From contig NZ_JAZGLW010000005.1 of assembly GCF_036409155.1 (NCBI RefSeq), positions 186,001 through 250,000 on the forward strand: a DNA stretch of 64,000 nucleotides, given 5' to 3'. Position 1 is the first letter of the stretch. The number at the start of each line of letters is the position of its first letter. The stretch is from Mycobacterium sp. 050128 (lineage in GTDB: Bacteria > Actinomycetota > Actinomycetes > Mycobacteriales > Mycobacteriaceae). This document shows, in pieces, positions 1 to 3,934 of this stretch. The translations under genes were made by a program, and so were the position numbers. The notes under the pieces were generated by a model that saw nothing but the letters and a program-made list of their open reading frames with translations, was not told the DNA's origin and ran no database searches.

Positions 1-633
1 GGCGATCAGGCCCATGTCATGCGAGAGCGGGAGCCAGCTCATCGTGACGTCGATGTCGGGATCGATCTGTACCTCGGCCACCATGGCGGCGATGTCGGCG
101 TGGAGGTTGCGGTGAGTGATCGCCACGGCCTTGGGGTCGCCGGTCGATCCCGAGGTGAGTTGATAGATGGCGACGTCGTCCTCGTCTGTCGGCTCCTCGA
201 CCCCGTCGGCGCCGGTCCACGTGTCGGGCACCTCGATGACGCGGAAACCTGACGCGCGCAGTGCGTCGGCAACCGCGACGAACGGCCGTCCCACCAGGAC
301 GCAATGCGCACCGAGCAGGCTCAGCGCGCGCAGGGTGCCCTCGTGCCACTCGCTGAGGTCGGCCTGCGACGTGGGTTGTTGCAGCATCGTCATCGCCGCG
401 CCCAACTTCCAGATGCCCTGGACGACCGGTGCGACATCTTCGGCGTGGGCGGCCAGCACACCCACCCGGCTGCCTCGGGTGACTCCTTCGCCGGCCAGTC
501 GGCCGGCGACCTTGCCCGCCGACTGATTGATGTCGTGCCAGCTAGCGAAATGCAGATTGCCGGCGGTGCCAAAGCGAAGGCCCAGGGTGGAATCCGCGGC
601 CACCTTCGCGATGCGGTCAGTAAACCTACTCAT
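1..633 (-). CDS. Fatty-acyl-AMP ligase / FadD-like protein, N-terminal part (runs off the window)
   Basis: This is the first 211 codons of an adenylate-forming enzyme that continues beyond base 1. The AMP-binding P-loop reads YQLTSGSTGDPKAV near residue 155. It is followed by SWLPLSHDMGLIA at the window edge. The HDMGL box is typical of fatty-acyl-AMP ligases (FAALs), which pass acyl adenylates to a carrier protein; CoA ligases usually differ here. The ATG at 633 has a GAGGA-like sequence upstream. The gene lies 72 bases downstream of the oxoamine synthase on the same strand, which suggests an operon. The FAAL-specific insertion lies outside the window, so a CoA ligase is not excluded. The substrate is unknown. 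Confidence 0.8.
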   Translation of the reverse strand, partial: MSRFTDRIAKVAADSTLGLRFGTAGNLHFASWHDINQSAGKVAGRLAGEGVTRGSRVGVLAAHAEDVAPVVQGIWKLGAAMTMLQQPTSQADLSEWHEGTLRALSLLGAHCVLVGRPFVAVADALRASGFRVIEVPDTWTGADGVEEPTDEDDVAIYQLTSGSTGDPKAVAITHRNLHADIAAMVAEVQIDPDIDVTMSWLPLSHDMGLIA

Positions 634-705
634 AGCCGTGCGCTGTCCTCACTGCAGACTGAATTCGTAAATGACCGGGCGCCAATAACATTCGGGAAAC
701 GCCTG

Positions 706-2246: not shown

Positions 2247-3107
2247 ATGAGCATTGCTTCTGTCCTGATACCGAGTGATACTCCGGACGGAGCCGCGACC
2301 AGCTCGCCTGGGCCGCGTTACTCGCTGTTGCTGTCCACCGACCCCAGTTTGGTCGAGGCAGCGCAGCGGCTCCGGTACGACGTATTCACCAGCACGCCCG
2401 GTTTCGCGTTGCCGGAATCGGGTGCCGGGGACCGGGACGTGGACCGCTTCGACGAGTTCTGTGATCACCTGCTGGTTCGCGACGACGACACCGGGGAGCT
2501 GGTGGGGTGTTACCGCATGCTGGCGCCGGCGGGTGCGATTGCCGCCGGCGGCCTGTATACCGCGACGGAATTCGATCTCGGCGCGCTCGACCCGTTGCGG
2601 CCGTCGCTGGTGGAGATGGGCCGCGCCGTGGTCCGCGACGGGCACCGCAACGGTGCCGTCGTGCTGTTGATGTGGGCGGGAATCCTGGCCTACCTGGACC
2701 GCTACGGCTACGACTACGTGATCGGGTGTGTGTCGGTGCCGATCGGCAGCGTGACAGACGAAGATGCGCCCGGCAGTCAGCTTCGGGGCGTGCGCGACTT
2801 CGTCCGCAGCCGGCACGCCGCGCCGCCGGAGTATCGCGTGTACCCGCACCGGCCGGTGGTGGTGGACGGCAAAAGCCTCGACGAGATCGCACCGCCGCCG
2901 CGCCCCTCGGTTCCGGCGCTGATGCGTGGTTACCTGCGGCTGGGTGCGAAATGCTGCGGCGAACCCGCGTTGGACCCGGACTTCGGTGTCGGCGACTTCT
3001 GCGTGCTGCTGGACAAACGCCAGGCCGACACCCGATATCTGCGAAGACTGCGGTCGGTATCGGCGGCCGCGCTGATGAGCGGCGAGATGGCGGGCGGCGC
3101 ACGATGA
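2247..3107 (+). CDS. OlsB-like GNAT acyltransferase (Rv3027c-type)
   Basis: This 286-residue protein belongs to the GNAT branch that includes ornithine-acyl-ACP N-acyltransferase (OlsB) and the autoinducer-synthase-like group. N-terminal features are RLRYDVFTSTPGF and the charged segment DRDVDRFDEFCDHLLVRD. The core has VGCYRML, a VEMGRAVVRDGHRNG cofactor-loop region and a Cys-rich C-terminal part (GAKCCGEP). The family uses acyl-ACP or acyl-CoA to acylate an amino group. The stop overlaps the start of the following PlsC-type acyltransferase (ATGA). That is the same two-enzyme order as OlsB/OlsA in ornithine-lipid synthesis, so the pair may build an aminolipid; this is inference. The ATG at 2247 is preferred over the in-frame ATG at 2160, because similarity begins after it. 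No clear Shine-Dalgarno is seen. Confidence 0.8.
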   Translation: MSIASVLIPSDTPDGAATSSPGPRYSLLLSTDPSLVEAAQRLRYDVFTSTPGFALPESGAGDRDVDRFDEFCDHLLVRDDDTGELVGCYRMLAPAGAIAAGGLYTATEFDLGALDPLRPSLVEMGRAVVRDGHRNGAVVLLMWAGILAYLDRYGYDYVIGCVSVPIGSVTDEDAPGSQLRGVRDFVRSRHAAPPEYRVYPHRPVVVDGKSLDEIAPPPRPSVPALMRGYLRLGAKCCGEPALDPDFGVGDFCVLLDKRQADTRYLRRLRSVSAAALMSGEMAGGAR

Positions 3108-3934
3108 ACGCTCCCGCGGTCACCACCGACCACGCTTGGCTGCCGCGCGCGACCTGCGACAGCAGCTGTGTAGGTGTGGCCCCCGCGTCGTCGCGGTGGC
3201 TGGTGGTGCTGCGGGTGACGCTTCGCCTGATGCTGGTGCTGTTACTGCTGCTGGGGGCGCCGTTGGCGCTGGTGCCATGGCCGGGGCAGATGCGGGTGCG
3301 GCAGTTCTACTGCCGGATGGTGCTGCGCGTTTTCGGGGTCCGGATCAGTGTGTCGGGGGCCCCGATCCGCAACCTGCGCGGGGTCCTGGTGGTCGGTCCG
3401 CATATGTCCTGGCTGGACGTCTTCGCCATCGGTGCGGTGCTGCCCGGCTGGTACGTCGCCCGCTCGGACATGTTCGGCGAGCTCGCGCAGCGCCTACTGA
3501 AGATCATTCCGATCGAACGGTCCAGCCTGCGGCGGCTGCCCGGCGTGGTGGAGACGGTCGCGGACCGGCTGCGTGGCGGCGAAACCGTGGTGGCCTTTCC
3601 CGAGGGCACCACGTGGTGCGGGGTGGCCTGCGGCTCGTTCTACCCGGCGATGTTCCAGGCCGCGATCGACGCCGGTCGCCCGGTCCAGCCACTGAGGCTG
3701 ACATATCACCACGTCGACGGCCTGATCTCGACCGCTCCGGCCTTCGTCGGGGAGGACACCCTGGTGGCGGCGATGTGCCGGATGATCGCCCAGCGCCGCA
3801 CCCTGGCGCATGTTCACGTCGAGTCTCTGCAGCTGCCGGGCGCCGACCGGCGGGGGCTGGCGCGCCGCTGCCAGCGGGCGGTGGGCGTCGGAGTGGCGCG
3901 GCGCCCAGGTCAACGCCACGTGCTGGCCGCTTAA
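3104..3934 (+). CDS. 1-acyl-sn-glycerol-3-phosphate/lyso-lipid acyltransferase (PlsC/OlsA family, Rv3026c-type)
   Basis: This 276-residue PlsC-family O-acyltransferase has a hydrophobic N-terminal segment (about residues 35-55) that anchors it to the membrane. Motif I is HMSWLD, which fits HX4D, and motif III is FPEGTT. It is translationally coupled to the preceding GNAT gene through an ATGA overlap at 3104-3107. By family it transfers an acyl chain from acyl-ACP or acyl-CoA to a hydroxyl. In an OlsBA-type pathway that would be the 3-hydroxyl of the N-linked fatty acid. Phosphatidic acid synthesis is the alternative role. The next gene, iscS, begins 34 bases downstream and is unrelated in function. 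Confidence 0.85.
   Translation: MNAPAVTTDHAWLPRATCDSSCVGVAPASSRWLVVLRVTLRLMLVLLLLLGAPLALVPWPGQMRVRQFYCRMVLRVFGVRISVSGAPIRNLRGVLVVGPHMSWLDVFAIGAVLPGWYVARSDMFGELAQRLLKIIPIERSSLRRLPGVVETVADRLRGGETVVAFPEGTTWCGVACGSFYPAMFQAAIDAGRPVQPLRLTYHHVDGLISTAPAFVGEDTLVAAMCRMIAQRRTLAHVHVESLQLPGADRRGLARRCQRAVGVGVARRPGQRHVLAA

What the first reader, a model, noticed from the sequence alone, without database searches (positions are those of the whole stretch)
1..3934. Oxoamine synthase plus acyl-AMP ligase opposite an OlsB/OlsA-like pair: a possible new aminolipid locus
A PLP oxoamine synthase (amino acid plus acyl thioester gives an aminoketone) is followed by a FAAL-like acyl-activating gene. It faces a GNAT and PlsC pair laid out like ornithine-lipid acyltransferases. 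Biotin genes are absent, and I do not recall the first two genes at this place in M. tuberculosis. Together they could make and then acylate a sphingoid-like or aminoketone lipid. The link across the divergent promoter is not proven.
Basis: partly seen in the sequence, partly recalled or inferred. Interest (0 to 1): 0.75.

Follow-up and report, generated by a model that had tools for sequence, protein, structure and literature searches.

The report
Carrier-protein-fed aminoketone operon in mycobacteria
A few slow-growing mycobacteria carry a compact three-gene set that probably links a fatty acid, held on its own carrier protein, to an amino acid to make an aminoketone lipid of a kind not yet described in these bacteria; the neighbouring acyltransferase genes are most likely just neighbours.

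Summary
The oxoamine synthase (AOS, 706-1950, minus) and the acyl-AMP ligase (FAAL, starting at base 633) are followed, just left of base 1, by an 83-aa acyl carrier protein (ACP) whose gene overlaps the ligase's by 4 bases. All 12 family loci that I could read carry AOS, FAAL and ACP together, one of them broken; the genes are under purifying selection. Best explanation: FAAL activates a free fatty acid and loads it on the ACP; AOS condenses acyl-ACP with an amino acid to an alpha-aminoketone. It works like the serine palmitoyltransferase/AcpR/AasR system of proteobacteria, but this AOS is a lineage of its own with an altered substrate loop. The proposed partnership with the OlsB/OlsA-like pair is not supported: both genes of the pair are in 183 of 198 Mycobacterium genomes, this AOS in 6 of 198, and 4 of 10 intact operons found in 396 genomes lie elsewhere. 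The nearest parallel in the genus is the unexplained bioF2-acpA-fadD34 type of locus. Amino acid, acyl chain and end product are unknown.

The parts
706..1950 (-). alpha-oxoamine synthase (AOS), 414 aa, first gene of the operon
1..633 (-). N-terminal 211 aa of the 553-aa FAAL-type acyl-AMP ligase. It continues left of the window to G000:C5:184972 and is followed there by the third gene, an 83-aa acyl carrier protein at G000:C5:184724-184975 minus (window base 1 = C5:186001), which overlaps the ligase gene's end by 4 bases
   Evidence: Ligase: NCBIfam NF005850 705 bits, cut-off 572; best PDB matches are an adenylation-domain ligase (6ulx) and a FAAL (3pbk); insertion absent from E. coli FadD, present in BL21 AasR. 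ACP: read; NCBIfam ACP models E 6.9e-9 but below their cut-offs; no Pfam match for this copy; DLGYDS motif kept in 5 of 5 family ACPs aligned
2247..3107 (+). OlsB-like GNAT N-acyltransferase (start revised from 2160); neighbour, probably not part of the system
   Evidence: PF13444 109.8 bits; OlsB equivalog 117.9 of 320 bits; start revised
3104..3934 (+). OlsA/PlsC-like O-acyltransferase; neighbour, probably not part of the system
   Evidence: PF01553 63.4 bits; OlsA equivalog 81.4 of 300 bits

Best explanation
A self-contained AOS-FAAL-ACP operon. Step 1 (inferred from family): the FAAL-type ligase adenylates a free fatty acid. Step 2 (inferred): it passes the acyl group to the phosphopantetheine of the dedicated ACP encoded next to it. 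Step 3 (inferred from the conserved PLP active site and from the SPT/AcpR/AasR precedent): the PLP enzyme condenses acyl-ACP with an alpha-amino acid, with loss of CO2, and releases a free alpha-aminoketone (long-chain-base-like). The amino acid is not known; the changed substrate loop argues that it need not be serine. Shown here: gene set, order, overlap of ligase and ACP genes in the window's genome, conservation, purifying selection, predicted fold and catalytic residues. The OlsB/OlsA-like pair across the divergent promoter is a near-universal resident of the genus and is not needed for the explanation.
For: AOS, FAAL and ACP together and in this order in 12 of 12 readable family loci (one broken; one, the MAG L055, with a second ACP between AOS and FAAL), in three chromosomal settings. 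Catalytic H/D/H/K invariant in 18 of 18 family rows, Arg R385 in 15 of 15. Model fold closest to SPT. The ligase carries a FAAL-type insertion; its best solved relatives are an adenylation-domain ligase and a FAAL (208 and 204 bits), while FadD13 reaches 82; second NCBIfam hit is the acyl-ACP ligase MbtM, below cut-off. dN/dS 0.09-0.24 in 13 of 13 comparisons of the three genes. Precedent: Caulobacter and BL21 SPT prefer acyl-AcpR made by AasR (abstract and sections 13-15 of PMC9386255); in BL21 that ligase gene is annotated fatty acyl-AMP ligase. A second mycobacterial AOS locus has the same kinds of partners (AOS fused to a GNAT, ACP, SnoaL-like, FAAL).
Against: No activity is shown. The ligase's own NCBIfam name is long-chain-fatty-acid--CoA ligase (subfamily, over cut-off), so acyl-CoA cannot be excluded. 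The window's ACP misses Pfam's PP-binding model, although the L055 orthologue passes. No reductase or export gene goes with the set at both sites, so the free aminoketone would have to be processed by enzymes coded elsewhere. Other genes are near at single sites: SDR genes near the operon in the four otsA/echA-region genomes and a polyketide synthase start about 8 kb away in M. szulgai (partly by eye).
Confidence: 0.72

Rival explanations
1. One reading: operon and OlsB/OlsA-like pair form one aminolipid pathway; AOS makes the aminoketone, the GNAT N-acylates it and the PlsC homologue O-acylates it.
For: Divergent arrangement with 296 bases between the AOS start and the revised GNAT start; kept intact in six genomes; in the BioF2-type locus a GNAT domain is fused to the AOS, a precedent for the chemistry, though of another GNAT family (PF13480, not PF13444).
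Against: Both genes of the pair in 183 of 198 genomes, AOS family in 6 of 198; 4 of 10 intact operons lie elsewhere, with no match to the pair's proteins in the 20 kb read; M. szulgai has both, on different contigs; four genomes without the operon keep the pair.
Confidence: 0.1
2. A sphingolipid starter: the AOS is a true serine palmitoyltransferase and the product is 3-oxosphinganine, later reduced and N-acylated by enzymes coded elsewhere.
For: Best sequence and structure matches are SPTs; same three kinds of partners as bacterial SPT systems.
Against: Scores 313 bits or less against SPT cut-offs of 500-670; a clade of the family with the SPT rows alone is rejected (p-AU 0.0004); the usual loop GSR-x-LNGT is replaced by [A/T]PP-x-CGT; no epimerase or YghO-like N-acyltransferase gene was recognised beside the operon (by eye).
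Confidence: 0.25
3. A signal-molecule synthase: a small aminoketone or hydroxyketone of the CqsA/LqsA kind, or an aminoketone that dimerises to a pyrazine.
For: Free-standing set without conserved membrane-lipid partners; patchy distribution, 11 of 396 genomes.
Confidence: 0.12
4. An extra biotin (KAPA) or threonine-pathway enzyme.
For: Names given to many relatives are 8-amino-7-oxononanoate synthase.
Against: The genome has a separate bioA-bioF cluster; bioF score 286 of 426 bits; grouping with BioF/KBL is rejected (p-AU 0.011).
Confidence: 0.02

Closest known systems
SPT/AcpR/AasR system of Caulobacter and E. coli BL21 (PMC9386255)
   Same: PLP oxoamine synthase + specialised ACP + dedicated acyl-activating ligase with the same insertion, encoded together; mechanism proposed to be the same
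   Different: AOS not in the SPT clade and with a different substrate loop; ligase 28% and ACP 27% identical to the BL21 proteins; no epimerase or N-acyltransferase gene in the set
bioF2-acpA-Rv0034-fadD34 locus of M. tuberculosis (gene order recalled) and its relatives in G026 and G161
   Same: AOS + ACP + FAAL in one cluster in the same genus; function unknown (PMC12910592 passages)
   Different: AOS carries an N-terminal GNAT domain and groups with proteobacterial SPTs (85/80, long branches); extra SnoaL-like gene; AOS 36-37% and FAAL 29-31% identical to the window's; the ligase insertion is 19 residues shorter
Cysteate acyl-ACP transferase of Alistipes (7u7h)
   Same: oxoamine synthase named for acyl-ACP use
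OlsB/OlsA ornithine-lipid acyltransferases
   Same: order and domains of the neighbouring pair
   Different: scores far below the equivalog cut-offs; pair present in most Mycobacterium genomes without this operon

Membership tests
alpha-oxoamine synthase family | PLP lysine, stacking His, Asp and second His of the active site | tested here: met
   H144, D217, H220, K251 in 18 of 18 family rows
alpha-oxoamine synthase family | AOS fold | tested here: met
serine palmitoyltransferase | curated equivalog score | tested here: not met
   313.3, 312.8 and 256.2 bits against cut-offs 500, 640 and 670; E. coli BL21 SPT scores 599 of 500
serine palmitoyltransferase | placement with characterised SPTs | tested here: not met
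   own clade 100/100; family + SPT rows as one clade rejected, p-AU 0.0004
serine palmitoyltransferase | serine + acyl thioester gives 3-oxosphinganine | not testable with these tools
   needs an enzyme assay
BioF (KAPA synthase) / KBL | curated score and placement | tested here: not met
   285.7 of 426 (bioF), 262.9 of 460 and 213 of 493 (KBL models); joint clade rejected, p-AU 0.011
fatty acyl-AMP ligase (FAAL) | insertion after the YGxAE motif that FACLs lack (recalled as a FAAL hallmark) | tested here: met
   53 residues from that motif to GRP against 26 in E. coli FadD and 53 in BL21 AasR; one FACL compared
fatty acyl-AMP ligase (FAAL) | transfer to a carrier protein, not to CoA | not testable with these tools
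   NCBIfam subfamily name is FA-CoA ligase (705 of 572 bits); closest solved chains are an adenylation-domain ligase and a FAAL
acyl carrier protein | phosphopantetheine serine in a D-S motif | tested here: met
   [DE]DLGYDS in 5 of 5 family ACPs aligned
acyl carrier protein | curated ACP profile score | tested here: inconclusive
   window copy: no Pfam match, NCBIfam ACP E 6.9e-9 but 35.5 of 106 bits; L055 orthologue passes Pfam at 25.7, cut-off 20.8
SPT/AcpR/AasR-type system | AOS, ACP and acyl-ACP ligase genes together | tested here: met
   12 of 12 loci
SPT/AcpR/AasR-type system | reductase (epi) and N-acyltransferase (aca) partners | tested here: inconclusive
   not recognised beside the operon in the window's genome (by eye); rest of the genome not searched for them
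OlsB/OlsA ornithine-lipid pathway | curated equivalog scores | tested here: not met
   OlsB 117.9 of 320, OlsA 81.4 of 300 bits
OlsB/OlsA ornithine-lipid pathway | ornithine lipid in the organism | not testable with these tools
   needs lipid analysis

The most novel reading that the evidence does not exclude
The operon makes a class of long-chain aminoketone or amino-alcohol lipids so far undescribed in mycobacteria, from an amino acid other than serine, by a carrier-protein-fed oxoamine synthase lineage of its own; the bioF2-acpA-fadD34 type of locus is a parallel solution of the same kind.
Probability: 0.33. Interest if true: 0.75.

Novelty: new variant of a known kind. Interest (0 to 1): 0.52.

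Why it matters
A 2026 census of M. tuberculosis PLP enzymes names the SPT-like BioF2 (Rv0032) as worth functional characterisation and says sphingolipids have never been described in mycobacteria (PMC12910592, passages). This operon shows that mycobacteria hold a second oxoamine synthase coupled to its own ACP and FAAL, from a different AOS lineage. It is small, seems complete and is found in species such as M. triplex and M. szulgai, so it can be rebuilt in a test tube from three proteins. That would show whether this genus makes aminoketone lipids.

Tried and rejected
Rejected: biotin/KBL enzyme; plain SPT; joint pathway with the OlsB/OlsA-like pair; decaying pseudogenes in the window (dN/dS); recent horizontal transfer between the two sites: operon dS between the window and M. 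szulgai is 0.59-0.94, seven genes around the pair 0.47-0.99.

Led nowhere or had to be redone: my first gene list missed the ACP; it appeared only after M. szulgai showed one. The first structure model, from 15 close sequences, was poor (pLDDT 70) and was replaced. The first tree held one wrongly framed row and was rebuilt; for I also dropped rows P0022, P0044 and P0120. The trees hold only part of what I had: one search used 75 rows, of them 29 of the 103 proteins P0018-P0120 and 21 of the 80 loci; one search used 34 of those rows. Of the 7 Bacteroidales rows called SPT, 5 pass the curated SPT cut-off and 2 fall just below it. The first FadD comparison was out of frame and redone. Sigma-70 promoter scan: 0 found, 0.7 expected. 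Amino-acid specificity could not be read from sequence. Paper searches that found 0 papers: oxoamine synthase + Mycobacterium + fatty acyl-AMP ligase; mycobacteria + sphingolipid biosynthesis + serine palmitoyltransferase homolog; serine palmitoyltransferase + fatty acyl-AMP ligase.

Full report
WHAT IS THERE. The four genes of the finding are confirmed. The window is part of contig C5 of a 6.73-Mb genome of the genus Mycobacterium (relatives of the same genus match named Mycobacterium contigs). Reading past base 1 shows the ligase complete, 553 aa, and directly after it an 83-aa acyl carrier protein whose GTG start overlaps the ligase's end by four bases. A GC-rich inverted repeat lies between the ACP and the convergent fixB (sequence). 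Beyond are fixA and a GH57-type gene (my labels, no family call).

HOW WIDESPREAD. In 396 Mycobacterium genomes, 11 hold this AOS family at 70% identity or more, one of them broken. Six intact copies (window genome, G277, G235 = M. ahvazicum, G110, G164 = M. triplex, G132) lie between fixB and the OlsB-like gene. Four (G113 = M. szulgai, G216 = M. angelicum, G237, G381 = M. vicinigordonae) lie beside an echA gene, with otsA near in G113, G216 and G381; in G237 the operon is on the other side of echA. Names come from equal contig lengths. EchA was checked by Pfam in G237 only, otherwise echA and otsA are labelled by eye. Intact means an AOS frame without stops and single unbroken matches to the ligase. 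A Mycobacteriaceae MAG (L055, 61-62%) has a third setting, with a second ACP between AOS and FAAL and a WS/DGAT-like gene and an MmpL-like gene downstream (MmpL by eye). The ACP follows the FAAL in 12 of 12 loci, counting the broken one and the MAG. The 7 Nocardiaceae/Streptomyces loci with 42-48% AOS (L057-L063, two of them on short contigs) showed no match to this FAAL or ACP at E 1e-3. In the protein search full-length relatives drop from 59% (P0017) to 50% and less (only the 7999 best candidates were scored).

HISTORY. In G031, whose OlsB-like gene is 92% identical, the operon is missing. A 66-base stretch 79% identical to the AOS gene (E 1e-10) remains in the 336-base gap between fixB and the pair, so the operon was probably lost there (alignment score 61 against a maximum of 32 in 100 shuffles). 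G051 and G173 have gaps of about 170 and 150 bases; the best matches there are short (12 to 24 bases, E 0.002 and worse), no convincing remnant. Synonymous divergence from M. szulgai is in the same range for operon (0.59-0.94) and neighbouring core genes (0.47-0.99), which fits vertical descent with a change of place rather than recent transfer. It does not say which site is older.

THE LIGASE AND ACP. The ligase is FAAL-like by its closest solved relatives and by the insertion (53 residues against 26 in FadD). Against this, its NCBIfam subfamily is named long-chain-fatty-acid--CoA ligase. The ACP is weakly recognised: NCBIfam E 6.9e-9 under the cut-offs, PDB ACPs from E 4e-6, Pfam not at all for this copy.

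THE PAIR ACROSS THE PROMOTER. The OlsB-like gene is in 185 of 198 genomes and the OlsA-like gene in 183 of 198; the genomes listed without a match show that both are in 183. In the sample (also 198) the AOS family is in 6, one broken. The last 120 bases or so before and around the GNAT start are shared with G031 and with G173, which lack the operon. A joint pathway in the one group where they are neighbours is not excluded, only unsupported. The fusion of a GNAT to the AOS in the BioF2 type is the best argument for it.

COMPARISON. The working model is that of Rhodobacterial SPT: AasR loads AcpR, SPT prefers acyl-AcpR (PMC9386255: abstract, sections 13-15 and a term search seen). The term search found no mention of mycobacteria in its main text. 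Within the genus the nearest parallel is the BioF2 type: in G026 and G161 an AOS of about 810-821 aa is followed by an ACP, a SnoaL-like gene (by eye) and a FAAL; in G026 the N-terminal part holds a GNAT domain. The G026 ACP matches the solved chain 2cgq named AcpA (140 bits; that 2cgq is Rv0033 is recalled). PMC12910592 (passages only) says BioF2 occurs only in the M. tuberculosis complex; G026 and G161 are 5.6-Mb genomes and so, by size (recalled), not of that complex. I did not compare Rv0032 itself. PMC3087520 (passages) lists Rv0032/33 BioF/AcpA among potential horizontal transfers. PMC10593935 (passages) lists Rv3026c among other putative PlsC candidates; that the window's pair corresponds to Rv3027c/Rv3026c is recalled from gene order, not tested.

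VERDICT. A real, conserved and self-contained operon; new variant of a known kind; function inferred, product unknown.

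Noticed in passing
L170 1188-5741 (G143): A polyketide synthase with KS, AT, a borderline PP-binding match and a C-terminal oxoamine synthase domain, beside a small ACP-like ORF and an MmpL-like gene (both by eye); AOS matches in similarly long frames were found in G188, G372 and G381.
   Followed up: partly
L046 8097-12842 and L047 7020-11762: BioF2-type loci (AOS of about 810-821 aa, ACP, SnoaL-like, FAAL; GNAT domain checked in L046 only) in 5.6-Mb genomes, against the published statement that BioF2 is confined to the M. tuberculosis complex.
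   Followed up: partly
L055 10230-14649 and on: MAG version of the operon has a second ACP between AOS and FAAL, then a wax-ester-synthase/DGAT-like gene and an MmpL-like gene (by eye): possible hints of acylation and export of the product.
   Followed up: no
L159 (G031), about 3900-3965: 66-base AOS remnant at the site where the operon is missing.
   Followed up: yes
L041/L056 (M. genavense): Matches to AOS, FAAL and the OlsB-like gene fall into pieces in different frames (AOS also one TAG), while the ACP frame is open: the locus is decaying there.
   Followed up: partly
L048 3719-15249 (G169): Another AOS cluster: FAAL-like ligase, PPDK/PEP-utiliser-like protein, AOS, nucleotidyltransferase, a kinase-like ORF (by eye) and an SDR-methyltransferase fusion.
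   Followed up: no
L057 10041-11675; L042 10506-11492: A Rhodococcus AOS and another mycobacterial AOS lie next to NAD-epimerase-like genes, as the presumed ketosphinganine reductase does in E. coli BL21.
   Followed up: no
G000:C1:2762069-2763193 (L049): A third oxoamine-synthase-like gene in the same genome, closest to bioF models but below the cut-offs listed, next to patatin-like genes (by eye).
   Followed up: no
window 2160-2247: Start of the OlsB-like gene is probably ATG 2247; the upstream in-frame stretch has stops or a shifted frame in relatives.
   Followed up: yes
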